Shown: positions 1,074 through 28,466, numbered from the stretch's first letter. The stretch: DNA of 64,000 bases from Hyaloraphidium curvatum (GCA_025558095.1 JAIVFI010000004.1:558001-622000), one strand, 5' to 3'. The notes: generated by a model not told the origin, from the sequence alone. A program made the numbers and translations.

Positions 1074-1175
1074 TTGGGACCCGCGTACCACGACCGATCC
1101 CATCGGAAACCGTACGGAGGGGCGGGCAGGAGTGGTGCAGCGGCCCGTCCCTGTGCGGCCGCGGGACATCCGGCG

Positions 1176-2142: not shown

Positions 2143-2385
2143 GCCGTGCGGTGCGGAGTAGAGGCTCTGGGTTGACCTGTGGCAAATTGTATGTCAGGGA
2201 CTCGCAAGCACTGCTTGCTCTTTTCTGCTGCTTCGCGCAAACTAGATCAGGACCATTCTCGCACGGATGGCGCGCCACCCTATCCTGACGCGGGCCTAAA
2301 CAACATTGTCAGGGGAGCTTCCTCTACTCGGACAACCAAAATGACAGGCCTAGTCCCACAGTCCATGTCTGCCCCAAACAATGGC

Positions 2386-3541: not shown

Positions 3542-4842
3542 ATGGTCGCCGGACTCATCGCCGGGGCCGCCAAGGCCGTCCTGGGCGGAGGCGGCGGCGG
3601 AGGTCCGAGCGCCGCCCCGACGTCGGTCAGCACGGCCACGCTCATCCACAACTACGTGTACGACGTCGGCAAGGCGACGGTCGAGGCCCGCGTGGCCAAC
3701 GAGGGCGCCGTGACCGGCCAGCAGGACGCCGCACTCTCCAACCGCGAGGCCGCCGACGTCGCGGGCTCGCAGCACGGCTCCGTGATAGGCATGCAGTCGC
3801 AGGCCGCTGACTTCTCGCAGGCGGCCCCGTTCGAGGCCTCGCTGGCCACCACGGCTATCAACATGGCCCACGGCAGCCACGCCATCGCAGATGCGCAGGC
3901 TAAGGCGCAGCAGGCCCTGCACGAGGCTCCACGGTCGGAGGCCAGCCGCGCTCCTGCTCGGGCGGACGGCGTTCTCGGAGCTGCCGACGAGGAAGCCATC
4001 GCGGGCCTGTTCACCGTGGTCAAAGACCTCAGCAACCGGGTGGGTGCTGGGGTGCTTGCACGGTGTCACCTGCGGTGCCGACCGCGCTGATGCAATACCC
4101 GGCCGACAGGTCACGGCCCTTGAGGGCGAGCTCCGGACCAAGGATGGCCTGGTCTGTGCTACTGCACCTACGGCACTGTGCCGCCCTTGATGATAACCTC
4201 CTGTCTTAGATAATGACGTTAATGGAGGAACTCTCTAAACTCAAAGAACAGAACCAGAAAGTCCAGCAGATGGAAGCACATTTTGGACAGGTGTTCACGC
4301 TTGACAGTTCAGGTGAGCAGTGGCCCAGGGCTTGATTCCTTTCACCGCTTTGATTTACTCATAGTTCTCATACAGGCCAGCTCAAGGTCCGCGCCGATTT
4401 GGTCAAGGCACACCAAATTGAAGTCGATTTGGTCAAGGCACACCGAATTGAAGTCGAACGGGTCAACGCACACCTGGTCAAGGCACGCCAAATTGAGGTC
4501 GATTCGGTCGAGGCACACCGAATTAAAGTCGATGAGGTCAAGGCGCACCGCCTCCAGCTGGGCAACTTCACACTTCGGCCTTCCCGCGTCAATCCAACTG
4601 AGCACCTGGAAATCTCCCAGGTCCGCCCTGCTATGGGCGACTTCACCGAGTACCCGATCGCCCTTTTCGGCGGGCTCCTTCCTGGTATGCCGAAGCTCAT
4701 GCTATACCTCAACGGCCGTATTGCTGGTTCAGACAGCACCCTGAGCTTCTTTGAGGTGGCGGCAAACGGGAACACTCGCGTTGTCCTCAAGCCCCGCGAG
4801 AAAACACCGCCCAACCACGAGGTCGGGGGCGTGACGTTTTAG
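3542..4842 (+). CDS. Array family type A, divergent founder-like copy (A1)
   Basis: Family not recognised. Exons 3542-4039, 4110-4151, 4210-4312 and 4376-4842 give 369 residues; introns of 70, 58 and 63 nt sit at the same positions and phases (0, 0, 1) as in the array copies. Introns 2 and 3 contain stops, so splicing is required. Order of parts: hydrophobic Ala/Gly N-terminus (MVAGLIAGAAKAVLGG plus a Gly run), an Ala/Ser/Gln/Asn-rich region, a short coiled coil, a 10-residue repeat block (4396-4560), and a C-terminal domain from about FTLRPSRVNPTEHLEISQV to the tail EVGGVTF. No signal peptide or enzyme motif is evident. It differs from the array copies throughout yet keeps every feature, which suggests function. 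Codon choice is less GC-biased in exons 3-4 than in the later copies. Confidence 0.72.
4396..4560 (+). repeat. In-frame 30-bp (10-residue) coding repeat in gene A1
   Basis: About five and a half degenerate units of the pattern (D/E)xVKAHxIEV; one unit lacks four residues. The array copies have only about one and a half units in the same place (VKAILVDVVKAARVEL), so the block expanded in A1 or shrank elsewhere. Confidence 0.75.
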
Positions 4843-6585
4843 ATGTCGTCTTCCAACCAGCAGCAGCAGCCGAGGACGTGAGCGCCGCGGACTCGCGCAC
4901 GCGTACGACCTGACCCCCCGAGTCCCGCAGGCGCTGCGAGCCAAGGCCGGCGAGACGAGCACCGGTAGCGGGGGTGTGGGCGGGATGGTTGGCCGGCGGA
5001 GGATTGGCCGCACATCCAGGGACTTAAGGACGTTGTTTGGGGGGAACCGGTGGGTGGGGCGTGTCGAAGGATGGCTGGCGCCGCATCCAGGGCTGGGTTT
5101 GTTGAGGGTCGCGAATAAGAGCTCGTCTCGCGAGGTTGAGGCGTTGTTGCGAGTTGACCGCGGCCGGCGGGGACCGGCGTCACCAACGGATCGACTCTCC
5201 GGCCTCCCACTGCTGCCCGGGGCGCTCGTCCGTATTTTTCCGGGCGCCCCGCACCGCGCCCATGGGGCTGCCGGGCACGCCGGGCCGAATGCCGCGTCCA
5301 GCGTCGGCGGCGGGCGGACCGGGCGCGGACTGTTTGCGCGGTGTTCCTCTCGGCCTGTGCGCCCGCAGGGACGCTGCGGTCACGCTGGAAGGCCAATTCT
5401 GCGGCCCGTTTGGCTCGGAGCGTGGACGGGCGGGGGAGACCACGGGCGCCTGCGGATGGTTCCCCTTCTCGGCCGGCGCGGATTGGAAACTGCAACTGAG
5501 GACCGGGCATCCCCCTGCCGGCGCTGCGGGGACCCGCTGCTCGAAAGCAGCCTCCCGTGGTCCTCCGTGCGCCGCGCTCCCTTGCTCGGCGGGTCTTCTG
5601 TTTCCGTGTTCTCTTGCTTCGAAGGCCGAACTCCTCGACAGGCAGAGCTAGGACGAGCTGACCCGCACTCATCCTATCGGACTCAAGGTGGACACGGACT
5701 CGCGCTGGAGCACGCCTGGGCTTTCTTGATGGTGCTGCGGGACAGCAGGAGATGATGTTCTCGTGGTTTTCGCGGCCAGCAAGGATCCCGGCCTGGCTTC
5801 GTCGAGCGCGACCTGGTCCCACCCCTCAACCAGCGCTCCTTCGGCTCGTTGCCGCCGCCCACATTGTTCTGCACTGCGGACGGAGTATTTCATGTGCCGT
5901 ACTTCGAAGGAACGCTATCCTGTGCTGAGTTGGCCGGCTTGCTTGAACTGGCGAGCCGCCGTACCTTCTGGATCACATGCCCGTCCCCTTGTCGGCGCCG
6001 CAACGGGATGGGGACGTACGAGAGTGTTATTGCCCTCGGGCATCGACTCGGACTTGGTTTGCTCGCTTTCCTTGGCGTTGGACGACTCGCGCCGTTTCAA
6101 GGATTGACCTTCGCGTCCCGGCTCACCCCCGAATCGCTCCGGAGCCCCAGCGGATCCCTGTTCTGCTGCTCCGGAACGTATTCGTCGGTGTTTCGATGGC
6201 AGTTTGTTATGCCGGTGCCGGCGGCCGCGTCGGAAACGCGGGTGTGCCGCGTGAGCGACGAACCATTTTGCAGTTCCCGACGGACCGATGCACGATCTAG
6301 CCCTAGGGATGCCGGCCAGCACCGTGGACGGATGACGATGGCGGATGCGGCCTCAGCCTTGCCCTCGTGCGGGGTGTGCAGAAGCTCGATGGGCGGAACC
6401 GGTGGCGGGGTCGGGTCCCGGCCCAGGTTCGGCCCCGGCCGGCTGCACCACATTCGAACCGAACCGCCGGACGGGCCCCGTCCGCCCGCCCGACGCCGCA
6501 CCGCCGAGGTGAAGTGCAACGCGGCTCGCGTCGCGCCCGCTGACCGCCCCGCCGCAGCCCCGCACGCACCGCACGCCATGCTCGT
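4843..6585 (+). repeat. Array spacer S1, followed by a lost gene
   Basis: Full spacer start (CAG microsatellite just after the stop), then the common core from 5026. About 200 bp are missing at 6441, between the GGCCCCGGCCGG and CACCACATTCGAACC words that flank this segment in S2. The spacer ends in ATGCTCGT (6578-6585), the first bases of a B-type gene, fused directly to the core of the next unit. No gene product is possible here. Confidence 0.85.
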
Positions 6586-8338
6586 AAGGACGTTGTTTGG
6601 GGGGAACCGGTGGGCGGGGCGTGTCGAAGGATGGCTGGCGCCGCATCCAGGGCTGGGTTTGTTGAGGGTCGCGAATAAGAGCTCGTCTCGCGAGGTTGAG
6701 GCGTTGTTGCGAGTTGCCCGCGGCCGGCGGGGACCGGCGTCACCCACCGGATCGACTCTCCGGCCTCCCACTGCTGCCCGGGGCGCTCGTCCGTATTTTT
6801 CCGGGCGCCCCGCACCGCGCCCATGGGGCTGCCGGGCACGCCGGGCCGAATGCCGCGTCCAGCGTCGGCGGCGGGCGGACCGGGCGCGGACTGTTTGCGC
6901 GGTGTTCCTCTCGGCCTGTGCGCCCGCAGGGACGCTGCGGTCACGCTGGAAGGCCAATTCTGCGGCCCGTTTGGCTCGGAGCGTGGACGGGCGGGGGAGA
7001 CCACGGGCGCCTGCGGATGGTTCCCCTTCTCGGCCGGCGCGGATTGGAAACTGCAACTGAGGACCGGGCATCCCCCTGCCGGCGCTGCGGGGACCCGCTG
7101 CTCGAAAGCAGCCTCCCGTGGTCCTCCGTGCGCCGCGCTCCCTTGCTCGGCGGGTCTTCTGTTTCCGTGTTCTCTTGCTTCGAAGGCCGAACTCCTCGAC
7201 AGGCAGAGCTAGGACGAGCTGACCCGCACTCATCCTATCGGACTCAAGGTGGACACGGACTCGCGCTGGAGCACGCCTGGGCTTTCTTGATGGTGCTGCG
7301 GGACAGCAGGAGATGATGTTCTCGTGGTTTTCGCGGCCAGCAAGGATCCCGGCCTGGCTTCGTCGAGCGCGACCTGGTCCCACCCCTCAACCAGCGCTCC
7401 TTCGGCTCGTTGCCGCCGCCCACATTGTTCTGCACTGCGGACGGAGTATTTCATGTGCCGTACTTCGAAGGAACGCTATCCTGTGCTGAGTTGGCCGGCT
7501 TGCTTGAACTGGCGAGCCGCCGTACCTTCTGGATCACATGCCCGTCCCCTTGTCGGCGCCGCAACGGGATGGGGACGTACGAGAGTGTTATTGCCCTCGG
7601 GCATCGACTCGGACTTGGTTTGCTCGCTTTCCTTGGCGTTGGACGACTCGCGCCGTTTCAAGGATTGACCTTCGCGTCCCGGCTCACCCCCGAATCGCTC
7701 CGGAGCCCCAGCGGATCCCTGTTCTGCTGCTCCGGAACGTATTCGTCGGTGTTTCGATGGCAGTTTGTTATGCCGGTGCCGGCGGCCGCGTCGGAAACGC
7801 GGGTGTGCCGCGTGCGCGACGAACCATTTTGCAGTTCCCGACGGACCGATGCACGATCTAGCCCTAGGGATGCCGGCCAGCACCGTGGACGGATGACGAT
7901 GGCGGATGCGGCCTCAGCCTTGCCCTCGTGCGGGGTGTGCAGAAGCTCGATGGGCGGAACCGGTGGCGGGGTCGGGTCCCGGCCCAGGTTCGGCCCCGGC
8001 CGGCCGTGCAGCGAATCCGCCGCCGACGACGCGCCGGCCGGCCGGCCGCAGCCTTTGGCGCCTCTGTGGACGGGGATCGAGAGAGATTCGGCGTGATGCG
8101 AGGGGATGTTGGGCCGATCATGTCTCCCCGCCACACAAACACACGCGTTTTCCCGCCGGGCCCGGACATGCGGGGGCCGAGCGGCGCAAGCCGCTCTTGC
8201 GTCTGCCACCACATTCGAACCGAACCGCCGGACGCGCCCCGTCCGCCCGCCCGACGCCGCACCGCCGAGGTGAAGTGCAACGCGGCTCCCGTCGCGCCCG
8301 CTGACCCACCCGCCGCAGCCCCGCACACGTCGCACGCC
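6586..8338 (+). repeat. Array spacer S2, upstream of gene B1
   Basis: Common core without the CAG-containing leader. It includes a GC-rich palindromic stretch (CCGGCCGGCCGG) near 8031-8047 and a hairpin GAGCGG-CGCAAG-CCGCTC at 8179-8196. Overlapping long frames exist on both strands, but none can be shown to be coding. The last few hundred bases presumably hold the promoter of B1. Confidence 0.85.
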
Positions 8339-9093
8339 ATGCTCGTCGGAGGAAGCTTTGCTCCCGCTACCGCTCCCGTCGATGGCTCGTCCGCCCCGAC
8401 GCCGGCCCAGCCGACGACGATAAACGTCAACGTCACCTTCCAGGAAGTAGGCACTGGCGTGGACAGCCGCCTGGCAAACGACGGCACGCCGGCCGACCAC
8501 CAGGGGGCAGCCGTGCACGACAGCACACGCTCGCAGAGCGCCGACGCCTCGCAGGCCGCCTCGACCGAGGTCACGCAGGCCACCACGGCGACCAACACCG
8601 CTCAAGGCGGCCGCGCGACCGTCTCCGTCCAGGTTACGGTCCATCTGGGTCAGCCGCAGACCCAGCTGCAGAGCGAGCTGCCGGACCAGTGCCAAGCTCC
8701 GCCGTCGGAGGCTTGCGACGCTGCTTTAAGGGCCGAAGCCGTCCTCTCGGCGGACGATTACGATGCGCTCGTCGATATGATGTACGGCTTGGGCCAGCTC
8801 AAGGACAGGGTGAGTCGTGGTGCTCGAGTGGCGGTGGCATTGGACGGGATGCTGATTTCATTTGCTGCGATAGGTCGACGACGTTGCCGCCGAGAATCTG
8901 GCCAAGCACGCGGAAGCCGCCGCCCGGGTGAGATCCTCGCTCAGAGCCGTGGGCCGCCGTATTCTGACTTCTCGGCCCGCAGATCGAGGATCTTGCTCGT
9001 GAGCTCGAGGCCAAGAAGCTTCGCCTTGCCGAACTCGAGTTCGGGATACAGGACCACGTGGCCCGGTGCGCGTGCGGCGGCGTGAACTTTTAG
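8339..9093 (+). CDS. Array family type B, short copy (B1)
   Basis: Family not recognised. Exons 8339-8809, 8874-8927 and 8983-9093 (introns 64 and 55 nt, phase 0) give 211 residues. The N-terminus (MLVGGSFAPATAPVDG) differs from type A, but the design is shared: an Ala/Thr/Gln-rich exon 1 with TTINVNVTFQEV replacing the A-type opening, an exon 1 that ends in a helical segment (SADDYDALVDMMYGLGQLKDR) like that of A (SAADEEAIAGL...DR), then short coiled-coil exons. It stops at GGVNF, next to a CAG-repeat leader like that after type A stops. It therefore lacks the large C-terminal part seen in B2, and a recombination event grafting an A-like 3' end is the likely cause. Confidence 0.62.
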
Positions 9094-11025
9094 GTCTCAT
9101 CTTACAAGCAGCAGCAGCAGCAGCCGAGGACGTGAGCGCCGCGGACTTGCGCACGCGTACGAACTGACCCCCCGAGTCCCGCAGGCGCTGCGAGCCAAGG
9201 CCGGCGAGACGAGCACCGGTAGCGGGGGTGTGGGCGGGATGGTTTGCCGGCGGAGGATTGGCCGAACATCCAGGGACTTAAGGACGTTGTTTGGGGGGAA
9301 CCGGTGGGCGGGGCGTGTCGAAGGATGGCTGGCGCCGCATCCAGGGCTGGGTTTGTTGAGGGTCGCGAATAAGAGCTCGTCTCGCGAGGTTGAGGCGTTG
9401 TTGCGAGTTGCCCGCGGCCGGCGGGGACCGGCGTCACCCACCGGATCGACTCTCCGGCCTCCCACTGCTGCCCGGGGCGCTCGTCCGTATTTTTCCGGGC
9501 GCCCCGCACCGCGCCCATGGGGCTGCCGGGCACGCCGGGCCGAATGCCGCGTCCAGCGTCGGCGGCGGGCGGACCGGGCGCGGACTGTTTGCGCGGTGTT
9601 CCTCTCGGCCTGTGCGCCCGCAGGGACGCTGCGGTCACGCTGGAAGGCCAATTCTGCGGCCCGTTTGGCTCGGAGCGTGGACGGGCGGGGGAGACCACGG
9701 GCGCCTGCGGATGGTTCCCCTTCTCGGCCGGCGCGGATTGGAAACTGCAACTGAGGACCGGGCATCCCCCTGCCGGCGTTGCGGGGACCCGCTGCTCGAA
9801 AGCAGCCTCCCGTGGTCCTCCGTGCGCCGCGCTCCCTTGCTCGGCGGGTCTTCTGTTTCCGTGTTCTCTTGCTTCGAAGGCCGAACTCCTCGACAGGCAG
9901 AGCTAGGACGAGCTGACCCGCACTCATCCTATCGGACTCAAGGTGGACACGGACTCGCGCTGGAGCACGCCTGGGCTTTCTTGATGGTGCTGCGGGACAG
10001 CAGGAGATGATGTTCTCGTGGTTTTCGCGGCCAGCAAGGATCCCGGCCTGGCTTCGTCGAGCGCGACCTGGTCCCACCCCTCAACCAGCGCTCCTTCGGC
10101 TCGTTGCCGCCGCCCACATTGTTCTGCACTGCGGACGGAGTATTTCATGTGCCGTACTTCGAAGGAACGCTATCCTGTGCTGAGTTGGCCGGCTTGCTTG
10201 AACTGGCGAGCCGCCGTACCTTCTGGATCACATGCCCGTCCCCTTGTCGGCGCCGCAACGGGATGGGGACGTACGAGAGTGTTATTGCCCTCGGGCATCG
10301 ACTCGGACTTGGTTTGCTCGCTTTCCTTGGCGTTGGACGACTCGCGCCGTTTCAAGGATTGACCTTCGCGTCCCGGCTCACCCCCGAATCGCTCCGGAGC
10401 CCCAGCGGATCCCTGTTCTGCTGCTCCGGAACGTATTCGTCGGTGTTTCGATGGCAGTTTGTTATGCCGGTGCCGGCGGCCGCGTCGGAAACGCGGGTGT
10501 GCCGCGTGCGCGACGAACCATTTTGCAGTTCCCGACGGACCGATGCACGATCTAGCCCTAGGGATGCCGGCCAGCACCGTGGACGGATGACGATGGCGGA
10601 TGCGGCCTCAGCCTTGCCCTCGTGCGGGGTGTGCAGAAGCTCGATGGGCGGAACCGGTGGCGGGGTCGGGTCCCGGCCCAGGTTCGGCCCCGGCCGGCCG
10701 TGCAGCGAATCCGCCGCCGACGACGCGCCGGCCGGCCGGCCGCAGCCTTTGGCGCCTCTGTGGACGGGGATCGAGAGAGATTCGGCGTGATGCGAGGGGA
10801 TGTTGGGCCGATCATGTCTCCCCGCCACACAAACACACGCGTTTTCCCGCCGGGCCCGGACATGCGGGGGCCGAGCGGCTTGCTTGCGTCTGCCACCACA
10901 TTCGAACCGAACCGCCGGACGCGCCCCGTCCGCCCGCCCGACGCCGCACCGCCGAGGTGAAGTGCAACGCGGCTCGCGTCGCGCCCGCTGACCCACCCGC
11001 CGCAGCCCCGCACGCACCGCACGCC
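9094..11025 (+). repeat. Array spacer S3, upstream of gene A2
   Basis: Full-length spacer with five CAG units after the stop. The hairpin GAGCGG...CCGCTC found at the matching place in S2 and S4-S8 is absent here (sequence GAGCGGCTTGCTTGCG near 10874), which accounts for most of the 7-bp shorter interval to the next unit. Confidence 0.85.
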
Positions 11026-12334
11026 ATGGTCGCCGGACTCATCGCCGGGGCCGCCAAGGCCGTCCTGGGCGGAGGCGGCGGCGGAGGCCCGAGCGCCGCC
11101 CCGACGTCGGTCACCACGGCCACGCACATCCACAACTACGTGTACGACGTCGGCAAGTCGACGGCCGAGGTCCGCGTGGCCAACGAGGGCGCCGTGACCG
11201 GCCAGCAGGACGCCGCCGTCTCCAACCGCCAGGCCGCCGACGTCTCGGGCTCGCAGCACGGCTCCGTCTCGGGCTCGCAGTCGCAGGCCGCTGACTTCTC
11301 GCAGGCGGCCTCGGTCGAGGCGTCGCTCGCCAACACGGCCACCAACACGGCCCACGGCGGCCACGCCACCGCAGACGCGCAGGCCAAGGCGCAGCAGAGC
11401 CAGCACCAGGGCCAGCACCAGGTTCAGCAGCAGAGCCAGCGTCAGGCGCAGGCCCAGCACCAGGCCCCGCCGTCCGAGGGCGGCCGCGCCCCTGCTCGGG
11501 CGGACGGTGTGCTCAGCGCCGCCGACGAGGAAGCCATCGCCGGCCTGTTCCCCGCCGTGCAGGGCGTCGGCGACCGGGTGAGTGCGGCGACTCCTTGGCG
11601 CCTTGCCGGCCACGCTGATGCAGTGCTCCGCGCGACAGCTCACCGCCGTCGAGGGCGAGCTCCGGACCAAGGACGCCGTGGTCGGTGCTGCTGCTGCTAC
11701 CGGCGTGTGCGGGCATGCTGATGTCTTCCCGCGGCAGATCGCCACGCTCAGCGAGACGGTTGCGGCCGTCGAGCGCCGCCTCGCCGAACTTGAGGCGCAG
11801 AAGACGGCCGACGCCGCGCTCCAGGCGGCTCTGGAAGCAGGCGCCGCCCAAGCCGACTCCAGGATCGGCGAGCTCTTCGCCAAGCTCCAGCGGATGGAGG
11901 CTCTTCTCGCTCAGGTGTTTGTGACGGACGGGCCCGGTGAGCAGCGCCCCGACTCCCCTGCGACTGCGACTGATGGAGGCATCCCGCTTCGTGCAGGCCG
12001 CCGCGTCAAAGCCATCCTTGTCGACGTGGTCAAGGCCGCCCGCGTCGAGCTCGGGAACTTCGCCATTCAGCCCTCCCGGGTCAACCCCACCGAGCACCTC
12101 GAGATCACGCAGGTCCGTCCCGCCACTGGCAACCACACCGAGTTCCCCATCGCCCTGTTCGGCGGGCTCCTCGGCGGCATGCCCAGGTTCAGGGTCTACC
12201 TCAAGGGCCGCGTCGCGGGTTCGGCCGACACGCTGACCTTTTACGAGGTCGGCGCCGACGGCGAAACCCGCGTCGTAGTCAAGACCCCCGCCCAGACCCC
12301 GCCCAATCACGAGGTCGGGGGCGTGACCTTCTAG
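11026..12334 (+). CDS. Array family type A, copy A2
   Basis: Exons 11026-11577, 11639-11680, 11738-11936 and 11997-12334 give 376 residues. Visible parts: Ala/Gly N-terminus with a seven-Gly run, an Asn/Gln/Ser/Ala-rich region, a Gln/His tract (QSQHQGQHQVQQQSQ) near residue 130, a coiled coil in exon 3 (VERRLAELEAQKTADAALQ), and the C-terminal domain ending in HEVGGVTF. Introns 2 and 3 (57 and 60 nt) are multiples of three without stops, so unspliced reading stays open. Exon 2 begins CTC, where A3-A5 have GTC. Function unknown; a structural or surface role would be a guess from composition only. Confidence 0.72.
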
Positions 12335-14270
12335 ATCTCATCTTTCAAGCAGCAGCAGCAGCCGAGGACGTGAGCGCCGCGGACTTGCGCACGCGTACGA
12401 ACTGAAGCCCCGAGTCCCGCAGGCGCTGCGAGCCAAGGCCGGCGAGACGAGCACCGGTAGCGGGGGCGTGGGCGGGATGGTTGGCCGGCGGAGGATTGGC
12501 CGAACATCCAGGGACTTAAGGACGTTGTTTGGGGGGAACCGGTGGGCGGGGCGTGTCGAAGGATGGCTGGCGCCGCATCCAGGGCTGGGTTTGTTGAGGG
12601 TCGCGAATAAGAGCTCGTCTCGCGAGGTTGAGGCGTTGTTGCGAGTTGCCCGCGGCCGGCGGGGACCGGCGTCACCCACCGGATCGACTCTCCGGCCTCC
12701 CACTGCTGCCCGGGGCGCTCGTCCGTATTTTTCCGGGCGCCCCGCACCGCGCCCATGGGGCTGCCGGGCACGCCGGGCCGAATGCCGCGTCCAGCGTCGG
12801 CGGCGGGCGGACCGGGCGCGGACTGTTTGCGCGGTGTTCCTCTCGGCCTGTGCGCCCGCAGGGACGCTGCGGTCACGCTGGAAGGCCAATTCTGCGGCCC
12901 GTTTGGCTCGGAGCGTGGACGGGCGGGGGAGACCACGGGCGCCTGCGGATGGTTCCCCTTCTCGGCCGGCGCGGATTGGAAACTGCAACTGAGGACCGGG
13001 CATCCCCCTGCCGGCGCTGCGGGGACCCGCTGCTCGAAAGCAGCCTCCCGTGGTCCTCCGTGCGCCGCGCTCCCTTGCTCGGCGGGTCTTCTGTTTCCGT
13101 GTTCTCTTGCTTCGAAGGCCGAACTCCTCGACAGGCAGAGCTAGGACGAGCTGACCCGCACTCATCCTATCGGACTCAAGGTGGACACGGACTCGCGCTG
13201 GAGCACGCCTGGGCTTTCTTGATGGTGCTGCGGGACAGCAGGAGATGATGTTCTCGTGGTTTTCGCGGCCAGCAAGGATCCCGGCCTGGCTTCGTCGAGC
13301 GCGACCTGGTCCCACCCCTCAACCAGCGCTCCTTCGGCTCGTTGCCGCCGCCCACATTGTTCTGCACTGCGGACGGAGTATTTCATGTGCCGTACTTCGA
13401 AGGAACGCTATCCTGTGCTGAGTTGGCCGGCTTGCTTGAACTGGCGAGCCGCCGTACCTTCTGGATCACATGCCCGTCCCCTTGTCGGTGCCGCAACGGG
13501 ATGGGGACGTACGAGAGTGTTATTGCCCTCGGGCATCGACTCGGACTTGGTTTGCTCGCTTTCCTTGGCGTTGGACGACTCGCACCGTTTCAAGGATTGA
13601 CCTTCGCGTCCCGGCTCACCCCCGAATCGCTCCGGAGCCCCAGCGGATCCCTGTTCTGCTGCTCCGGAACGTATTCGTCGGTGTTTCGATGGCAGTTTGT
13701 TATGCCGGTGCCGGCGGCCGCGTCGGAAACGCGGGTGTGCCGCGTGCGCGACGAACCATTTTGCAGTTCCCGACGGACCGATGCACGATCTAGCCCTAGG
13801 GATGCCGGCCAGCACCGTGAACGGATGACGATGGCGGATGCGGCCTCAGCCTTGCCCTCGTGCGGGGTGTGCAGAAGCTCGATGGGCGGAACCGGTGGCG
13901 GGGTCGGGTCCCGGCCCAGGTTCGGCCCCGGCCGGCCGTGCAGCGAATCCGCCGCCGACGACGCGCCGGCCGGCCGGCCGCAGCCTTTGGCGCCTCTGTG
14001 GACGGGGATCGAGAGAGATTCGGCGTGATGCGAGGGGATGTTGGGCCGATCATGTCTCCCCGCCACACAAACACACGCGTTTTCCCGCCGGGCCCGGACA
14101 TGCGGGGGCCGAGCGGCGCAAGCCGCTCTTGCGTCTGCCACCACATTCGAACCGAACCGCCGGACGCGCCCCGTCCGCCCGCCCGACGCCGCACCGCCGA
14201 GGTGAAGTGCAACGCGGCTCGCGTCGCGCCCGCTGACCGCCCCGCCGCAGCCCCGCACGCACCGCACGCC
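12335..14270 (+). repeat. Array spacer S4
   Basis: Full spacer, 1,936 bp, with four CAG units. It carries the GGTGCCGC variant (near 13487) shared only with S5 and S6, and CGTGAACGG (near 13816) shared with S5-S7. Confidence 0.85.
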
Positions 14271-17515: not shown

Positions 17516-18824
17516 ATGGTCGCCGGACTCATCGCCGGGGCCGCCAAGGCCGTCCTGGGCGGAGGCGGCGGCGGAGGCCCGAGCGCCGCCCCGACGTCGG
17601 TCACCACGGCCACGCACATCCACAACTACGTGTACGACGTCGGCAAGTCGACGGCCGAGGTCCGCGTGGCCAACGAGGGCGCCGTGACCGGCCAGCAGGA
17701 CGCCGCCGTCTCCAACCGCCAGGCCGCCGACGTCTCGGGCTCGCAGCACGGCTCCGTCTCGGGCTCGCAGTCGCAGGCCGCTGACTTCTCGCAGGCGGCC
17801 TCGGTCGAGGCGTCGCTCGCCAACACGGCCACCAACACGGCCCACGGCGGCCACGCCACCGCAGACGCGCAGGCCAAGGCGCAGCAGAGCCAGCACCAGG
17901 GCCAGCACCAGGTTCAGCAGCAGAGCCAGCGTCAGGCGCAGGCCCAGCACCAGGCCCCGCCGTCCGAGGGCGGCCGCGCCCCTGCTCGGGCGGACGGTGT
18001 GCTCAGCGCCGCCGACGAGGAAGCCATCGCCGGCCTGTTCCCCGCCGTGCAGGGCGTCGGCGACCGGGTGAGTGCGGCGACTCCTTGGCGCCTTGCCGGC
18101 CACGCTGATGCAGTGCTCCGCGCGACAGGTCACCGCCGTCGAGGGCGAGCTCCGGACCAAGGACGCCGTGGTCGGTGCTGCTGCTGCTACCGGCGTGTGC
18201 GGGCATGCTGATGTCTTCCCGCGGCAGATCGCCACGCTCAGCGAGACGGTTGCGGCCGTCGAGCGCCGCCTCGCCGAACTTGAGGCGCAGAAGACGGCCG
18301 ACGCCGCGCTCCAGGCGGCTCTGGAAGCAGGCGCCGCCCAAGCCGACTCCAGGATCGGCGAGCTCTTCGCCAAGCTCCAGCGGATGGAGGCTCTTCTCGC
18401 TCAGGTGTTTGTGACGGATGGGCCCGGTGAGCAGCGCCCCGACTCCCCTGCGACTGCGACTGATGGAGGCATCCCGCTTCGTGCAGGCCGCCGCGTCAAA
18501 GCCATCCTTGTCGACGTGGTCAAGGCCGCCCGCGTCGAGCTCGGGAACTTCGCCATTCAGCCCTCCCGGGTCAACCCCACCGAGCACCTCGAGATCACGC
18601 AGGTCCGTCCCGCCACTGGCAACCACACCGAGTTCCCCATCGCCCTGTTCGGCGGGCTCCTCGGCGGCATGCCCAGGTTCAGGGTCTACCTCAAGGGCCG
18701 CGTCGCGGGTTCGGCCGACACGCTGACCTTTTACGAGGTTGGCGCCGACGGCGAAACCCGCGTCGTAGTCAAGACCCCCGCCCAGACCCCGCCCAATCAC
18801 GAGGTCGGGGGCGTGACCTTCTAG
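17516..18824 (+). CDS. Array family type A, copy A4
   Basis: Exons 17516-18067, 18129-18170, 18228-18426 and 18487-18824, 376 residues, apparently identical in protein sequence to A3 and A5. It lies exactly 3,245 bp from each neighbour. No difference useful for judging selection was seen. Confidence 0.72.
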
Positions 18825-20760
18825 ATCTCATCTTTCAAGCAGCAGCAGCAGCCGAGGACGTGAGCGCCGCGGACTTGCGCACGCATACGAACTGAAGCCC
18901 CGAGTCCCGCAGGCGCTGCGAGCCAAGGCCGGCGAGACGAGCACCGGTAGCGGGGGCGTGGGCGGGATGGTTGGCCGGCGGAGGATTGGCCGAACATCCA
19001 GGGACTTAAGGACGTTGTTTGGGGGGAACCGGTGGGCGGGGCGTGTCGAAGGATGGCTGGCGCCGCATCCAGGGCTGGGTTTGTTGAGGGTCGCGAATAA
19101 GAGCTCGTCTCGCGAGGTTGAGGCGTTGTTGCGAGTTGCCCGCGGCCGGCGGGGACCGGCGTCACCCACCGGATCGACTCTCCGGCCTCTCACTGCTGCC
19201 CGGGGCGCTCGTCCGTATTTTTCCCGGCGCCCCGCACCGCGCCCATGGGGCTGCCGGGCACGCCGGGCCGAATGCCGCGTCCAGCGTCGGCGGCGGGCGG
19301 ACCGGGCGCGGACTGTTTGCGCGGTGTTCCTCTCGGCCTGTGCGCCCGCAGGGACGCTGCGGTCACGCTGGAAGGCCAATTCTGCGGCCCGTTTGGCTCG
19401 GAGCGTGGACGGGCGGGGGAGACCACGGGCGCCTGCGGATGGTTCCCCTTCTCGGCCGGCGCGGATTGGAAACTGCAACTGAGGACCGGGCATCCCCCTG
19501 CCGGCGCTGCGGGGACCCGCTGCTCGAAAGCAGCCTCCCGTGGTCCTCCGTGCGCCGCGCTCCCTTGCTCGGCGGGTCTTCTGTTTCCGTGTTCTCTTGC
19601 TTCGAAGGCCGAACTCCTCGACAGGCAGAGCTAGGACGAGCTGACCCGCACTCATCCTATCGGACTCAAGGTGGACACGGACTCGCGCTGGAGCACGCCT
19701 GGGCTTTCTTGATGGTGCTGCGGGACAGCAGGAGATGATGTTCTCGTGGTTTTCGCGGCCAGCAAGGATCCCGGCCTGGCTTCGTCGAGCGCGACCTGGT
19801 CCCACCCCTCAACCAGCGCTCCTTCGGCTCGTTGCCGCCGCCCACATTGTTCTGCACTGCGGACGGAGTATTTCATGTGCCGTACTTCGAAGGAACGCTA
19901 TCCTGTGCTGAGTTGGCCGGCTTGCTTGAACTGGCGAGCCGCCGTACCTTCTGGATCACATGCCCGTCCCCTTGTCGGTGCCGCAACGGGATGGGGACGT
20001 ACGAGAGTGTTATTGCCCTCGGGCATCGACTCGGACTTGGTTTGCTCGCTTTCCTTGGCGTTGGACGACTCGCGCCGTTTCAAGGATTGACCTTCGCGTC
20101 CCGGCTCACCCCCGAATCGCTCCGGAGCCCCAGCGGATCCCTGTTCTGCTGCTCCGGAACGTATTCGTCGGTGTTTCGATGGCAGTTTGTTATGCCGGTG
20201 CCGGCGGCCGCGTCGGAAACGCGGGTGTGCCGCGTGCGCGACGAACCATTTTGCAGTTCCCGACGGACCGATGCACGATCTAGCCCTAGGGATGCCGGCC
20301 AGCACCGTGAACGGATGACGATGGCGGATGCGGCCTCAGCCTTGCCCTCGTGCGGGGTGTGCAGAAGCTCGATGGGCGGAACCGGTGGCGGGGTCGGGTC
20401 CCGGCCCAGGTTCGGCCCCGGCCGGCCGTGCAGCGAATCCGCCGCCGACGACGCGCCGGCCGGCCGGCCGCAGCCTTTGGCGCCTCTGTGGACGGGGATC
20501 GAGAGAGATTCGGCGTGATGCGAGGGGATGTTGGGCCGATCATGTCTCCCCGCCACACAAACACACGCGTTTTCCCGCCGGGCCCGGACATGCGGGGGCC
20601 GAGCGGCGCAAGCCGCTCTTGCGTCTGCCACCACATTCGAACCGAACCGCCGGACGCGCCCCGTCCGCCCGCCCGACGCCGCACCGCCGAGGTGAAGTGC
20701 AACGCGGCTCGCGTCGCGCCCGCTGACCGCCCCGCCGCAGCCCCGCACGCACCGCACGCC
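18825..20760 (+). repeat. Array spacer S6
   Basis: Full spacer. First unit with the linked variants CCTCTCACTG (near 19190) and TTTTTCCCGG (near 19219), which also mark S7 and S8 but not S1-S5. Confidence 0.85.
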
Positions 20761-22069
20761 ATGGTCGCCGGACTCATCGCCGGGGCCGCCAAGGCCGTCC
20801 TGGGCGGAGGCGGCGGCGGAGGCCCGAGCGCCGCCCCGACGTCGGTCACCACGGCCACGCACATCCACAACTACGTGTACGACGTCGGCAAGTCGACGGC
20901 CGAGGTCCGCGTGGCCAACGAGGGCGCCGTGACCGGCCAGCAGGACGCCGCCGTCTCCAACCGCCAGGCCGCCGACGTCTCGGGCTCGCAGCACGGCTCC
21001 GTCTCGGGCTCGCAGTCGCAGGCCGCTGACTTCTCGCAGGCGGCCTCGGTCGAGGCGTCGCTCGCCAACACGGCCACCAACACGGCCCACGGCGGCCACG
21101 CCACCGCAGACGCGCAGGCCAAGGCGCAGCAGAGCCAGCACCAGGGCCAGCACCAGGTTCAGCAGCAGAGCCAGCGTCAGGCGCAGGCCCAGCACCAGGC
21201 CCCGCCGTCCGAGGGCGGCCGCGCCCCTGCTCGGGCGGACGGTGTGCTCAGCGCCGCCGACGAGGAAGCCATCGCCGGCCTGTTCCCCGCCGTGCAGGGC
21301 GTCGGCGACCGGGTGAGTGCGGCGACTCCTTGGCGCCTTGCCGGCCACGCTGATGCAGTGCTCCGCGCGACAGGTCACCGCCGTCGAGGGCGAGCTCCGG
21401 ACCAAGGACGCCGTGGTCGGTGCTGCTGCTGCTACCGGCGTGTGCGGGCATGCTGATGTCTTCCCGCGGCAGATCGCCACGCTCAGCGAGACGGTTGCGG
21501 CCGTCGAGCGCCGCCTCGCCGAACTTGAGGCGCAGAAGACGGCCGACGCCGCGCTCCAGGCGGCTCTGGAAGCAGGCGCCGCCCAAGCCGACTCCAGGAT
21601 CGGCGAGCTCTTCGCCAAGCTCCAGCGGATGGAGGCTCTTCTCGCTCAGGTGTTTGTGACGGATGGGCCCGGTGAGCAGCGCCCCGACTCCCCTGCGACT
21701 GCGACTGATGGAGGCATCCCGCTTCGTGCAGGCCGCCGCGTCAAAGCCATCCTTGTCGACGTGGTCAAGGCCGCCCGCGTCGAGCTCGGGAACTTCGCCA
21801 TTCAGCCCTCCCGGGTCAACCCCACCGAGCACCTCGAGATCACGCAGGTCCGTCCCGCCACTGGCAACCACACCGAGTTCCCCATCGCCCTGTTCGGCGG
21901 GCTCCTCGGCGGCATGCCCAGGTTCAGGGTCTACCTCAAGGGCCGCGTCGCGGGTTCGGCCGACACGCTGACCTTTTACGAGGTTGGCGCCGACGGCGAA
22001 ACCCGCGTCGTAGTCAAGACCCCCGCCCAGACCCCGCCCAATCACGAGGTCGGGGGCGTGACCTTCTAG
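20761..22069 (+). CDS. Array family type A, copy A5
   Basis: Exons 20761-21312, 21374-21415, 21473-21671 and 21732-22069, 376 residues. Last intact type A copy. Its full C-terminal domain and GGVTF tail contrast with the broken neighbour A6. Confidence 0.72.
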
Positions 22070-24005
22070 ATCTCATCTTTCAAGCAGCAGCAGCAGCCGA
22101 GGACGTGAGCGCCGCGGACTTGCGCACGCATACGAACTGAAGCCCCGAGTCCCGCAGGCGCTGCGAGCCAAGGCCGGCGAGACGAGCACCGGTAGCGGGG
22201 GCGTGGGCGGGATGGTTGGCCGGCGGAGGATTGGCCGAACATCCAGGGACTTAAGGACGTTGTTTGGGGGGAACCGGTGGGCGGGGCGTGTCGAAGGATG
22301 GCTGGCGCCGCATCCAGGGCTGGGTTTGTTGAGGGTCGCGAATAAGAGCTCGTCTCGCGAGGTTGAGGCGTTGTTGCGAGTTGCCCGCGGCCGGCGGGGA
22401 CCGGCGTCACCCACCGGATCGACTCTCCGGCCTCTCACTGCTGCCCGGGGCGCTCGTCCGTATTTTTCCCGGCGCCCCGCACCGCGCCCATGGGGCTGCC
22501 GGGCACGCCGGGCCGAATGCCGCGTCCAGCGTCGGCGGCGGGCGGACCGGGCGCGGACTGTTTGCGCGGTGTTCCTCTCGGCCTGTGCGCCCGCAGGGAC
22601 GCTGCGGTCACGCTGGAAGGCCAATTCTGCGGCCCGTTTGGCTCGGAGCGTGGACGGGCGGGGGAGACCACGGGCGCCTGCGGATGGTTCCCCTTCTCGG
22701 CCGGCGCGGATTGGAAACTGCAACTGAGGACCGGGCATCCCCCTGCCGGCGCTGCGGGGACCCGCTGCTCGAAAGCAGCCTCCCGTGGTCCTCCGTGCGC
22801 CGCGCTCCCTTGCTCGGCGGGTCTTCTGTTTCCGTGTTCTCTTGCTTCGAAGGCCGAACTCCTCGACAGGCAGAGCTAGGACGAGCTGACCCGCACTCAT
22901 CCTATCGGACTCAAGGTGGACACGGACTCGCGCTGGAGCACGCCTGGGCTTTCTTGATGGTGCTGCGGGACAGCAGGAGATGATGTTCTCGTGGTTTTCG
23001 CGGCCAGCAAGGATCCCGGCCTGGCTTCGTCGAGCGCGACCTGGTCCCACCCCTCAACCAGCGCTCCTTCGGCTCGTTGCCGCCGCCCACATTGTTCTGC
23101 ACTGCGGACGGAGTATTTCATGTGCCGTACTTCGAAGGAACGCTATCCTGTGCTGAGTTGGCCGGCTTGCTTGAACTGGCGAGCCGCCGTACCTTCTGGA
23201 TCACATGCCCGTCCCCTTGTCGGCGCCGCAACGGGATGGGGACGTACGAGAGTGTTATTGCCCTCGGGCATCGACTCGGACTTGGTTTGCTCGCTTTCCT
23301 TGGCGTTGGACGACTCGCACCGTTTCAAGGATTGACCTTCGCGTCCCGGCTCACCCCCGAATCGCTCCGGAGCCCCAGCGGATCCCTGTTCTGCTGCTCC
23401 GGAACGTATTCGTCGGTGTTTCGATGGCAGTTTGTTATGCCGGTGCCGGCGGCCGCGTCGGAAACGCGGGTGTGCCGCGTGAGCGACGAACCATTTTGCA
23501 GTTCCCGACGGACCGATGCACGATCTAGCCCTAGGGATGCCGGCCAGCACCGTGAACGGATGACGATGGCGGATGCGGCCTCAGCCTTGCCCTCGTGCGG
23601 GGTGTGCAGAAGCTCGATGGGCGGAACCGGTGGCGGGGTCGGGTCCCGGCCCAGGTTCGGCCCCGGCCGGCCGTGCAGCGAATCCGCCGCCGACGACGCG
23701 CCGGCCGGCCGGCCGCAGCCTTTGGCGCCTCTGTGGACGGGGATCGAGAGAGATTCGGCGTGATGCGAGGGGATGTTGGGCCGATCATGTCTCCCCGCCA
23801 CACAAACACACGCGTTTTCCCGCCGGGCCCGGACATGCGGGGGCCGAGCGGCGCAAGCCGCTCTTGCGTCTGCCACCACATTCGAACCGAACCGCCGGAC
23901 GCGCCCCGTCCGCCCGCCCGACGCCGCACCGCCGAGGTGAAGTGCAACGCGGCTCGCGTCGCGCCCGCTGACCGCCCCGCCGCAGCCCCGCACGCACCGC
24001 ACGCC
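22070..24005 (+). repeat. Array spacer S7
   Basis: Full spacer that mixes variants: CCTCTCACTG like S6 and S8, CGTGAACGG like S4-S6, but GGCGCCGC and GTGAGCGACG like S1 and S8. The mosaic fits unequal exchange or gene conversion. Confidence 0.85.
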
Positions 24006-25284
24006 ATGGTCGCCGGACTCATCGCCGGGGCCGCCAAGGCCGTCCTGGGCGGAGGCGGCGGCGGAGGCCCGAGCGCCGCCCCGACGTCGGTCACCACGGC
24101 CACGCACATCCACAACTACGTGTACGACGTCGGCAAGTCGACGGCCGAGGTCCGCGTGGCCAACGAGGGCGCCGTGACCGGCCAGCAGGACGCCGCCGTC
24201 TCCAACCGCCAGGCCGCCGACGTCTCGGGCTCGCAGCACGGCTCCGTCTCGGGCTCGCAGTCGCAGGCCGCTGACTTCTCGCAGGCGGCCTCGGTCGAGG
24301 CGTCGCTCGCCAACACGGCCACCAACACGGCCCACGGCGGCCACGCCACCGCAGACGCGCAGGCCAAGGCGCAGCAGAGCCAGCACCAGGGCCAGCACCA
24401 GGTTCAGCAGCAGAGCCAGCGTCAGGCGCAGGCCCAGCACCAGGCCCCGCCGTCCGAGGGCGGCCGCGCCCCTGCTCGGGCGGACGGTGTGCTCAGCGCC
24501 GCCGACGAGGAAGCCATCGCCGGCCTGTTCCCCGCCGTGCAGGGCGTCGGCGACCGGGTGAGTGCGGCGACTCCTGGCGCCTTACCGGCCATGCTGATGC
24601 AGTGCTCCGCGCGACAGGTCACCGCCGTCGAGGGCGAGCTCCGGACCAAGGACGCCGTGGTCGGTGCTGCTGCTGCTACCGGCGTGTGCGGGCATGCTGA
24701 TGTCTTTCCCGCGGCAGATCGCCACGCTCAGCGAGACGCTTGCGGCCGTCGAGCGCCGCCTCGCCGAACTTGAGGCGCAGAAGACGGCCGACGCCGCGCT
24801 CCAGGCGGCTCTGGAAGCAGGCGCCGCCCAAGCCGACTCCAGGATCGGCGAGCTCTTCGCCACGCTCCAGCGGATGGAGGCTCTTCTCGCTCAGGTGTTT
24901 GTGACGGACGGGCCCGGTGAGCAGCGCCCCGACTCCCCTGCGACTGCGACTGATGGAAGCATCCCGCTTCGTGCAGGCCGCCGCGTCAAAGCCATCCTCT
25001 TCGACGTGGTCAAGGCCCTCCGCGTCGAGCTCAGGAACTTCGCCATTCAGCCCTCCCGGGTCAACCCCACCGAGCACCTCGAGATCTCGCAGGTCCGCAC
25101 CGCGTCGGGCAACGCCACCGAGTTCCCCATCGTCCTGTTCGGCGGGCTCCTCGGCGGCATGCCTAAGTTCAGGGTCTACCTCAAGGGCCGCGCACCTCGA
25201 GATCTCGCAGGTCCACACCGCGTCGGGCAACCCCACCGAGTTCCCCATCGCCCTGTTCGGCGGGCTCCTCGGCGGCATGCCTAA
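24006..25284 (+). pseudogene. Array family type A, broken copy A6
   Basis: Exons 24006-24557, 24618-24659 and 24718-24916 are intact, as is the start of exon 4 at 24977. Exon 4 is interrupted after LKGR: a second copy of a 101-bp segment (25074-25174 repeated as 25192-25292) is inserted out of phase and reading ends at a TAA at 25282-25284. The last third of the C-terminal domain, including the GGVTF tail, is gone. Exon 4 also has several residue differences from A2-A5 (FDVVKALRVELRNF, ISQVRTASGNATEF), so this copy is older than the central ones. It could still make a truncated protein. Confidence 0.8.
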
Positions 25285-27072
25285 GTTCAGGGCGGGATGG
25301 GCTGCGCATCCAGGGACTTAAGGACGTTCCTTGGGGGGAACCGGCGGGCGGGGCGTGTCGAAGGATGGCTGGCGCCGCATCCAGGGCTGGGTTCGTTGAG
25401 GGTCGCGAATAAGAGCTCGTCTCGCGAGGTTGAGGCGTTGTTGCGAGTTGCCCGCGGCCGGCGGGGACCGGCGTCACCCACCGGATCGACTCTCCGGCCT
25501 CTCACTGCTGCCCGGGGCGCTCGTCCGTATTTTTCCCGGCGCCCCGCACCGCGCCCATGGGGCTGCCGGGCACGCCGGGCCGAATGCCGCGTCCAGCGTC
25601 GGCGGCGGGCGGACCGGGCGCGGACTGTTTGCGCGGTGTTCCTCTCGGCCTGTGCGCCCGCAGGGACGCTGCGGTCACGCTGGAAGGCCAATTCTGCGGC
25701 CCGTTTGGCTCGGAGCGTGGACGGGCGGGGGAGACCACGGGCGCCTGCGGATGGTTCCCCTTCTCGGCCGGCGCGGATTGGAAACTGCAACTGAGGACCG
25801 GGCATCCCCCTGCCGGCGCTGCGGGGACCCGCTGCTCGAAAGCAGCCTCCCGTGGTCCTCCGTGCGCCGCGCTCCCTTGCTCGGCGGGTCTTCTGTTTCC
25901 GTGTTCTCTTGCTTCGAAGGCCGAACTCCTCGACAGGCAGAGCTAGGACGAGCTGACCCGCACTCATCCTATCGGACTCAAGGTGGACACGGACTCGCGC
26001 TGGAGCACGCCTGGGCTTTCTTGATGGTGCTGCGGGACAGCAGGAGATGATGTTCTCGTGGTTTTCGCGGCCAGCAAGGATCCCGGCCTGGCTTCGTCGA
26101 GCGCGACCTGGTCCCACCCCTCAACCAGCGCTCCTTCGGCTCGTTGCCGCCGCCCACATTGTTCTGCACTGCGGACGGAGTATTTCATGTGCCGTACTTC
26201 GAAGGAACGCTATCCTGTGCTGAGTTGGCCGGCTTGCTTGAACTGGCGAGCCGCCGTACCTTCTGGATCACATGCCCGTCCCCTTGTCGGCGCCGCAACG
26301 GGATGGGGACGTACGAGAGTGTTATTGCCCTCGGGCATCGACTCGGACTTGGTTTGCTCGCTTTCCTTGGCGTTGGACGACTCGCGCCGTTTCAAGGATT
26401 GACCTTCGCGTCCCGGCTCACCCCCGAATCGCTCCGGAGCCCCAGCGGATCCCTGTTCTGCTGCTCCGGAACGTATTCGTCGGTGTTTCGATGGCAGTTT
26501 GTTATGCCGGCGCCGGCGGCCGCGTCGGAAACGCGGGTGTGCCGCGTGAGCGACGAACCATTTTGCAGTTCCCGACGGACCGATGCACGATCTAGCCCTA
26601 GGGATGCCGGCCAGCACCGTGGACGGATGACGATGGCGGATGCGGCCTCAGCCTTGCCCTCGTGCGGGGTGTGCAGAAGCTTGATGGGCGGAACCGGTGG
26701 CGGGGTCGGGTCCCGGCCCAGGTTCGGCCCCGGCCGGCCGTGCAGCGAATCCGCCGCCGACGACGCGCCGGCCGGCCGGCCGCAGCCTTTGGCGCCTCTG
26801 TGGACGGGGATCGAGAGAGATTCGGCGTGATGCGAGGGGATGTTGGGCCGATCATGTCTCCCCGCCACACAAACACACGCGTTTTCCCGCCGGGCCCGGA
26901 CATGCGGGGGCCGAGCGGCGCAAGCCGCTCTTGCGTCTGCCACCACATTCGAACCGAACCGCCGGACGCGCCCCGTCCGCCCGCCCGACGCCGCACCGCC
27001 GAGGTGAAGTGCAACGCGGCTCCCGTCGCGCCCGCTGACCCACCCGCCGCAGCCCCGCACACGTCGCACGCC
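25285..27072 (+). repeat. Array spacer S8, upstream of gene B2
   Basis: The leader with the CAG repeat and about 170 bp are missing; the duplicated A6 fragment joins directly to GCGGGATGGG and then the core at 25320, whose marker word is altered (GACGTTCCTTGG). The remainder matches S7. Confidence 0.85.
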
Positions 27073-28466
27073 ATGCTCGTCGGAGGAAGCTTTGCTCCCG
27101 CTACCGCTCCCGTCGATGGCTCGTCCGCCCCGACGCCGGCCCAGCCGACGACGATAAACGTCAACGTCACCTTCCAGGAAGTAGGCACTGGCGTGGACAG
27201 CCGCCTGGCAAACGACGGCACGCCGACCGACCACCAGGGGGCAGCTGTGGACGACCGCACACGCTTGCAGGTCGCCGACGCCTTTCCGACCGCCTCGACC
27301 GAGGTCACGCAGGCCACCACGGCGACCAACACCGCCCTCGGCGGCCGCGCGACCGTGTCCGTCCAGGTTACGGTCCATCTGGGTCCGCCGCAGGCCCAGC
27401 TGCAGAGCGAGCTGCCGGACCAGTGCCAAGCTCCGCCGTCGGAGGCTCGCGGTGCTGCTTTAAGGGCCGACGCCGTCCTCTCGGCGGACGATTACGATGC
27501 GCTCGTCGATATGATGTACGGCTTGGGCCAGCTCAAGGACAGGGTGAGTCGTGGTGCTCGAGTGGCGGTGGCATTGGACGGGATGCTGATTTCATTTGCT
27601 GCGATAGGTCGACGACGTTGCCGCCGAGAATCTGGCCAAGCACGCGGAAGCCGCCGCCCGGGTGAGATCCTCGCTCAGAGCCGTGGGCCGCCGTATTCTG
27701 ACTTTCTCGGCCCGCAGATCGAGAATCTTGCTCGTGAGCTCGAGGCCAAGAAGCTTCGCCTTGCCGAACTCGAGTCCGAGATGCAGGACCAATTGGCCCG
27801 GTGCGGCGGCTTCCCCATCCAGCCGTCGCAGGTTGACGACAAGTTCGAGCATCTGGAGGCCAATAAGCGCGCCACATTGCGCCGTGATCTGGATCGACAG
27901 CTTGCTCTCTTCGGCCTTCATGTTGTCGGAGACATGGTCGTCGTCGACGACCGTTCAATTCCTCGTGCCAACAACCTGGCCCCTCCAGTGGCCCCGGCCG
28001 TGATTCTGCCTGACTTGTTTGAGCACCTGACGGCCTTGCTGCCCATCCTCCGCGACCAACCTGTACAGCCCTCGCATTTCGATCTGAGGGAAGCTGAAGC
28101 TAGGCGTGATGCCTCGCCCACTCGTTTTGGCGACGTCTCCCTGGATGAGGGGCTGGGCTCATTTGAGCACGCGAAAGCGAAGTGGGACCCATGTCTTGCA
28201 CTCGCGAGATTAGCAATCCTACTCACAAAGCCTTTTCTGGCTTTTCCAACAGCATCGCTACCAAGCCTACTTCTAGCGTACCGACCTGGCTCCTCAAGCG
28301 CAAGTGGCGTGTTGATGACCCCTTGGCCCCTCTCTATGACAGCTTCGCCAAAGCCCTTGCACCTGCACCGGCCGACAGCCCGGAGACTGATGCTCTTAGT
28401 GTCACTTGCATGGGCAACAGCGGGGCACCTGAAGACCACGACCCCGATTCGTTCAGCGATGCCTAA
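27073..28466 (+). CDS. Array family type B, long copy (B2), 3' end uncertain
   Basis: Exons 27073-27543, 27608-27661 and from 27718 match B1 in structure (introns 64 and 56 nt). Exon 3 continues past the point where B1 ends into a helical, charged region (for example FEHLEANKRATLRRDLDRQL) and a segment with VVGDMVVVDDRSIP. The frame used by exon 3 degrades after about 28180, while the next frame reads protein-like sequence (TWLLKRKWRVDDPLAPLYDS) to a stop at 28466. A 74-nt intron 28135-28208 (GTCTCC...GCGAG) would connect them and give 399 residues; a one-base frameshift is the alternative. Function unknown. It closes the array on the right. Confidence 0.5.

What the first reader, a model, noticed from the sequence alone, without database searches (positions are those of the whole stretch)
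3542..28466. Undescribed tandem gene family with 3,245-bp units
Seen directly: seven surviving genes plus one deleted unit in the same orientation, with a repeat interval of exactly 3,245 bp for the central copies and near-identical 1.9-kb spacers. The proteins share an Ala/Gly N-terminus, a low-complexity Asn/Gln/Ser middle, a coiled coil and a conserved C-terminal domain ending GGVTF, and match no family I can name. Dosage, phase or antigenic-type variation, or a secreted or structural product needed in bulk, are possible roles but are inference.
Basis: partly seen in the sequence, partly recalled or inferred. Interest (0 to 1): 0.8.

Follow-up and report, generated by a model that had tools for sequence, protein, structure and literature searches.

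The report
Tandem array of an orphan fungal gene
A fungus carries eight copies of an unnamed coiled-coil protein gene in a row, four of them intact and virtually identical and bearing the codon signature of a heavily used gene; this looks like ordinary gene-copy amplification of a lineage-specific protein whose job is unknown.

Summary
The array is real. Nine slots in one orientation (window 3542 to about 28.1 kb) hold eight gene copies and one deleted gene: A0, (deleted), A2a, four intact A1, a damaged A1', A2b. The five A1 start codons are exactly 3,245 bp apart. A further, dispersed paralog lies on contig C38. The genes have conserved exon structure, codon periodicity and short GT-AG introns; the roughly 1.9-kb spacers show no coding periodicity. 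Spacers are about 98-99.9% identical even where flanking genes share only 42-66% amino acids and introns no more than chance, so the spacers have been homogenised by unequal exchange or gene conversion while the gene types stayed distinct. That pattern is already described in trypanosome arrays.

No profile or structure library, prokaryotic genome, phage or viral collection gave a credible homolog; eukaryotic proteomes could not be searched. Only the amplified A1 type shows strong codon adaptation (z 5.0-7.5). Its copies encode the same protein, which argues against antigenic variation and for dosage, although neutral amplification is a serious rival because other exact tandem arrays occur in this genome. 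The most likely product is an abundant self-associating coiled-coil protein with a conserved C-terminal domain. Molecular function is inferred, not shown.

The parts
3542..4842 (+). Gene A0: 369 aa, 4 exons (3542-4039, 4110-4151, 4210-4312, 4376-4842), intact, ends GGVTF; exon 4 carries decapeptide-like repeats (VKAHRIEVD) before the conserved domain; no array spacer upstream
   Evidence: dN/dS vs A1 about 0.24 in C-terminal part
4843..6584 (.). Spacer S0 with an internal deletion of about 200 bp; ends with the start-codon remnant ATGCTCG of the deleted gene
6585..8338 (.). Spacer S1; lacks the first ~182 bp because the slot-2 gene plus the start of this spacer are deleted
8339..9093 (+). Gene A2a: 211 aa, 3 exons (8339-8809, 8874-8927, 8983-9093), C-terminal domain lost, ends GGVNF
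9094..11025 (.). Spacer S2
11026..12334 (+). Gene A1 copy 1: 376 aa, 4 exons; one aa change V185L
12335..14270 (.). Spacer S3
14271..15579 (+). Gene A1 copy 2: 376 aa, 4 exons
15580..17515 (.). Spacer S4
17516..18824 (+). Gene A1 copy 3: 376 aa, 4 exons
18825..20760 (.). Spacer S5 (used as the reference unit with the following gene, 3,245 bp); no codon periodicity
20761..22069 (+). Gene A1 copy 4: exons 20761-21312, 21374-21415, 21473-21671, 21732-22069; 376 aa; GC by codon phase strongly skewed
22070..24005 (.). Spacer S6
24006..25284 (+). Gene A1': damaged copy, C-terminal domain truncated by a local rearrangement and frame change (366 aa by reading frame)
25285..27072 (.). Spacer S7 (recognisable from 25295); first ~150 bp replaced
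27073..28497 (+). Gene A2b: A2-type exons 1-2 (27073-27543, 27608-27661) and coil, then an open frame without the conserved domain; coding periodicity fades past about 28.1 kb; probably decaying

Best explanation
This is a lineage-restricted tandem gene array. SHOWN: a small old gene family (types A0, A1, A2 and the dispersed C38 paralog) in which one type, A1, has been recently amplified in exact 3,245-bp units; the spacers of the whole array are nearly identical while the gene types between them are different; copies at the edges are decaying. [quoted passage not shown] INFERRED: the amplification is kept because it raises the dosage of the A1 protein. INFERRED: that protein is a self-associating coiled-coil product (hydrophobic Ala/Gly N-terminus, low-complexity Ala/Gln/Ser stretch, coiled coil, conserved C-terminal domain ending GGVTF, no Cys or Trp) made in large amount, most likely structural or assembly-forming.
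For: Exact 3,245-bp spacing and 99.1-100% identity of A1 units. Coding nature: GC by codon phase range mostly 0.3-0.45 in exons against 0.04-0.19 in the spacer; conserved exon structure with GT-AG introns across A1, A0, A2 and C38; purifying selection on the C-terminal part (A1-A0 dN 0.25, dS 1.05; A1-C38 dN 0.37, dS 0.83). Spacer-specific homogenisation: spacer pairs differ by 0.1-1.8%, although A1-A0 is 66% and A1-A2a 42% identical in aligned amino acids and their introns are no more alike than shuffles; many of the differences cluster within about 80 bp after stop codons and 60 bp before start codons. A0 exon 1 has dS 0.12 against A1 but about 1.0 in later exons, a conversion mosaic. Dosage: A1 codon adaptation to EF1A and histone exons is z +7.5 over background usage and z +5.0 after matching G/C-ending codons, while A0, A2a and C38 give -1.7 to +1.6 and eight neighbouring genes -2.9 to +4.4 (unmatched) or -2.5 to +2.1 (matched). 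Coiled coil: heptad a/d hydrophobicity 0.88 from about aa 188 of A1 and aa 155 of C38.
Against: No expression data. The codon reference set is small (about 310 codons) and so is the background (eight window ORFs, cores approximated). Two AlphaFold2 runs on the C-terminal exon gave low confidence (mean pLDDT 48 and 43), so the fold is unknown. Other near-perfect tandem arrays of 1.2-2.0 kb units occur in this genome, so amplification need not be adaptive. A structural role for the conserved C-terminal domain is not tested.
Confidence: 0.5

Rival explanations
1. Neutral amplification: this genome readily builds kb-scale tandem arrays, and the A1 block is one of them, with copy number of no consequence; the family is an ordinary orphan gene.
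For: A single reverse-transcriptase query exposed three other arrays in this genome with units of 2,029 bp (99.9%), 2,011 bp (99.6-99.7%) and about 1.2 kb (mostly 91-99%). Copies at the edges of the A1 block are broken.
Against: Those arrays concern reverse-transcriptase-bearing, transposon-like sequence; A1 alone in its family shows strong codon adaptation, and its four copies keep the same protein, although recent copying explains that as well.
Confidence: 0.33
2. Diversity generator: the array is a reservoir of variants (antigenic, allorecognition or phase-variable) that exchange cassettes between fixed spacers.
For: Distinct gene types sit between identical spacers, and exon 1 of A0 looks converted by A1.
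Against: Four of eight copies encode the same protein; the diverged A2 copies have lost the conserved domain and evolve at dN/dS about 1; no switching feature was found and no convincing signal peptide by inspection.
Confidence: 0.06
3. Assembly artefact: part or all of the tandem copies are mis-assembled reads.
For: Central units differ by only 2-4 bases in 3,245, so exact copy number cannot be certified without reads.
Against: Units carry private substitutions, indels and deletions, gene types alternate, and the array ends in unique flanks; the multi-copy structure does not rest on identical units alone.
Confidence: 0.05
4. The spacer, not the gene, is the selected or selfish unit (a hidden gene, RNA or mobile element in the 1.9-kb spacer).
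For: The spacer is the most uniform part of the array.
Against: No codon periodicity in the spacer, no Rfam match in the window, no copy found outside this array in the genome.
Confidence: 0.04

Closest known systems
Yeast CUP1 tandem array (PMC4232551)
   Same: Gene-plus-spacer units repeated head to tail in a fungus; copy number altered by unequal exchange; dosage is the accepted benefit.
   Different: CUP1 encodes a metallothionein; here several diverged gene types share one spacer and the protein is an orphan. No homology is claimed.
Trypanosoma brucei tandem arrays with diverged coding and uniform non-coding sequence, e.g. Tb93 BARPs, Tb24, Tb62a (PMC1855330)
   Same: The unusual pattern of non-coding parts more conserved than coding sequence (BARP coding distance 0.335 against 0.073 and 0.038 in UTRs) and diverged end copies; explained there by gene conversion.
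   Different: Trypanosome arrays are transcribed polycistronically; these fungal genes have their own introns. Unrelated proteins.
Dinoflagellate tandem arrays of highly expressed genes (PMC2488372)
   Same: Association of tandem arrangement with high expression (14 of 15 highly expressed genes in tandem arrays).
   Different: There expression was inferred from cDNA abundance; here only from codon usage.

Membership tests
Dosage-type tandem gene array (CUP1-like in behaviour) | Head-to-tail repeats of the same gene with near-identical units | tested here: met
   Five A1 units spaced exactly 3,245 bp, 99.1-100% identical
Dosage-type tandem gene array (CUP1-like in behaviour) | Copies encode the same intact product | tested here: met
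   Four of five A1 copies: 376 aa, one substitution in one copy; A1' is damaged
Dosage-type tandem gene array (CUP1-like in behaviour) | Signature of high expression of the amplified gene | tested here: inconclusive
   Codon adaptation z 5.0-7.5 for A1, not for A0, A2a, C38; no RNA or protein data
Dosage-type tandem gene array (CUP1-like in behaviour) | Copy number varies between strains and changes a phenotype | not testable with these tools
   Only one genome of this organism is held
Antigenic or other variant-surface gene family | Intact copies encode diverse products | tested here: not met
   Intact A1 copies are the same; diverged A2 copies lack the C-terminal domain; only A0 is both intact and different
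Antigenic or other variant-surface gene family | Secreted or surface-anchored product | tested here: inconclusive
   Short hydrophobic N-terminus, peak 19-residue hydropathy 1.3 at residue 1, no Cys; no signal-peptide predictor available
Any described protein family (Pfam, NCBIfam, PHROGs, PDB) | Profile or sequence match above the curated cut-off | tested here: not met
   Only coiled-coil or low-complexity hits below cut-off
Any protein family in eukaryotic proteomes outside these libraries | Homolog in other fungi or eukaryotes | not testable with these tools
   No eukaryotic proteome collection on hand

The most novel reading that the evidence does not exclude
A1 is the subunit of a previously undescribed abundant fungal assembly (fibre, coat or matrix) built from a coiled coil capped by a new C-terminal domain, with array length tuning its amount.
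Probability: 0.15. Interest if true: 0.55.

Novelty: new member of a known kind. Interest (0 to 1): 0.3.

Why it matters
It is a clean natural case of spacer homogenisation with retained gene diversity in a fungus: introns serve as an internal neutral control, and the amplified type alone carries codon adaptation. The protein is an orphan family, in the collections searched, with a conserved C-terminal domain that could be solved. Beyond that it is one more lineage-specific tandem array.

Tried and rejected
Viral origin: no relatives in IMG/VR contigs or phage records. Prokaryotic origin: none in genome contigs. Hidden spacer gene or RNA: no codon periodicity, no Rfam hit. PDB sequence matches: a GCN4/trimeric adhesin construct, huntingtin fusions, antibodies and reovirus sigma-1 at E 0.01-1, judged coiled-coil, poly-Gln or chance. 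Pfam RAP1 E 4e-4 and NCBIfam SMC E 9e-4 are below their cut-offs and come from low-complexity or coil stretches. Fold searches with the two AlphaFold2 models gave no match at E below 0.1, as expected for models of pLDDT 48 and 43. A C9 hit (E 0.025) to the N-terminal exon was too weak to count and its neighbourhood showed no coil or C-terminal domain hit. 5.8S and 18S rRNA searches meant to identify the organism failed; IFT46 search gave nothing but its control was silent too; species guesses were not confirmed in the literature.

Full report
OBSERVATION. The window lies at 558001-622000 of contig C4 in a 31.9-Mb, 55-contig genome; the window is 66% G+C. Nearby genes (transcription factor DP with E2F_TDP domain; Zn2Cys6 plus fungal-specific transcription-factor domain) point to a fungus; from general knowledge E2F/DP proteins are not a Dikarya feature, so an early-diverging fungus is likely but not proven.

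The array is real and larger than described. Blastn of one unit against the window finds eight spacers and eight genes in the same orientation: A0 (3542), a deleted slot (junction at 6584/6585), A2a (8339), A1 at 11026, 14271, 17516 and 20761, a damaged A1' at 24006, and A2b at 27073. The five A1 start codons are exactly 3,245 bp apart. One more paralog sits alone on contig C38, with no array spacer.

GENE MODELS. Exons were placed by comparison between copies. A1 has four exons (552, 42, 199, 338 bp) and introns of 61, 57 and 60 bp, all GT-AG; A0 has the same structure, C38 lacks the second small exon, A2 shares introns 1 and 2. The four intact A1 copies give 376 aa, identical but for V185L in the first. 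In exon 1, G+C at the third codon position reaches 0.95-0.99, and the phase range is 0.3-0.45 across most exon windows, against 0.04-0.19 in the spacer. The C-terminal part is under purifying selection (A1-A0: dN 0.25, dS 1.05; A1-C38: dN 0.37, dS 0.83). These are real genes; the spacers do not look coding.

ANATOMY OF THE PROTEIN. N-terminal hydrophobic Ala/Gly segment (MVAGLIAGAAKAVLGGGGGGG in A1, MVLGMIAGALAGGGSGG in C38), an Ala/Gln/Ser/His-rich stretch (Asn only 2.7%), a heptad-patterned coil from about aa 188, and a separate C-terminal exon (aa 265-376) that is 50-68% identical between A1, A0 and C38 and ends GGVTF in all three. A0 has an expanded VKAHRIEVD-type repeat before this domain. 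A1, A0 and C38 contain no Cys and no Trp. AlphaFold2 on the C-terminal exon with three or four sequences failed (mean pLDDT 48 and 43), suggesting only that the domain is mostly strands.

DECAY AT THE EDGES. A2a runs from the coil straight into a GGVNF ending, having lost the domain. A2b keeps the N-terminal part and coil but not the domain. A2a and A2b differ with dN 0.064 and dS 0.059, a ratio of about 1, so they look unconstrained. A1' is broken by a local rearrangement inside the domain.

SPACERS. The eight spacers differ pairwise by 0.1-1.8%. The genes between them do not match this: A1-A0 66% and A1-A2a 42% amino-acid identity over aligned positions, and introns of A1, A0 and A2a are no more alike than the best shuffles, whereas A2a-A2b introns are 98-100% alike. 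Introns and spacers should both be near neutral, so the spacers have been homogenised specifically. Many spacer differences cluster in about 80 bp after the stop codon and 60 bp before the start codon, as expected if conversion or crossover tracts run through the identical spacer and fade near diverged genes. Exon 1 of A0 has dS 0.12 against A1 while later exons have about 1.0, which reads as a conversion tract starting where homology starts, at the ATG. The inferred history is an old small family in which A1 was recently amplified and unequal exchange through the spacers kept them uniform. This pattern is not new: in Trypanosoma brucei, arrays such as Tb93 (coding distance 0.335 against 0.073 and 0.038 in UTRs), Tb24 and Tb62a show it, and gene conversion was proposed (PMC1855330).

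WHY AMPLIFIED. Codon adaptation measured against EF1A, H3 and H2B exons of this genome is 0.53-0.55 for A1, 0.33-0.34 for A0, 0.35-0.36 for A2a, 0.43-0.44 for C38 and 0.31-0.46 for eight neighbouring genes. Controlling for amino-acid content gives z +7.5 for A1 (next highest +4.4); also fixing the G/C or A/T class of each third base gives z +5.0 (next highest +2.1). This suggests that A1, and not its relatives, is translated heavily. The reference and background sets are small and no expression data exist. Tandem arrangement and high expression go together in other organisms (14 of 15 highly expressed dinoflagellate genes, PMC2488372), and yeast CUP1 is the standard fungal dosage array (PMC4232551). 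Against a purely adaptive reading, three other exact arrays turned up in this genome from one reverse-transcriptase search (units 2,029, 2,011 and about 1,239 bp), so tandem amplification may be a general habit here.

KNOWN FAMILIES. No curated cut-off was reached in Pfam or NCBIfam, and PHROGs gave nothing significant. PDB sequence hits were coiled-coil, poly-Gln or antibody noise. No relative was confirmed in IMG/VR, GTDB species genomes or phage records. Eukaryotic proteomes could not be searched, so 'orphan' means orphan in these collections.

VERDICT. A genuine tandem array of a lineage-restricted gene, evolving by concerted homogenisation of its spacers. The best reading is dosage of an abundant self-associating coiled-coil protein (0.5), with neutral amplification next (0.33). 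As a kind of thing it is known; the protein is unassigned.

Noticed in passing
G000:C12:482000-491999 (L069), G000:C37:306000-315900 (L071), G000:C36:184500-193500 (L070): Reverse-transcriptase-bearing segments lie in near-perfect tandem arrays with units of 2,029, 2,011 and about 1,239 bp, up to 99.9% identical; kb-scale tandem amplification seems a general habit of this genome (or of its assembly).
   Followed up: partly
window 51794-53236 (+): ORF with a ligand-gated ion channel domain (Pfam Lig_chan, E 6e-11), of glutamate-receptor type, in a fungal genome; unusual for fungi as far as I know.
   Followed up: no
window 1074-2288 (+): Transcription factor DP with E2F_TDP winged helix (E 3e-10 and 5e-9), suggesting a fungus outside Dikarya.
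   Followed up: no
window 2749-3375 (-): ORF of 209 aa next to the array, with codon-phase skew but no Pfam match.
   Followed up: no
window 6565-6592: The deleted slot keeps an A1-type 5' flank joined to a start ATGCTCG that resembles the A2 type, a possible recombinant boundary at the start codon; too short to be sure.
   Followed up: partly
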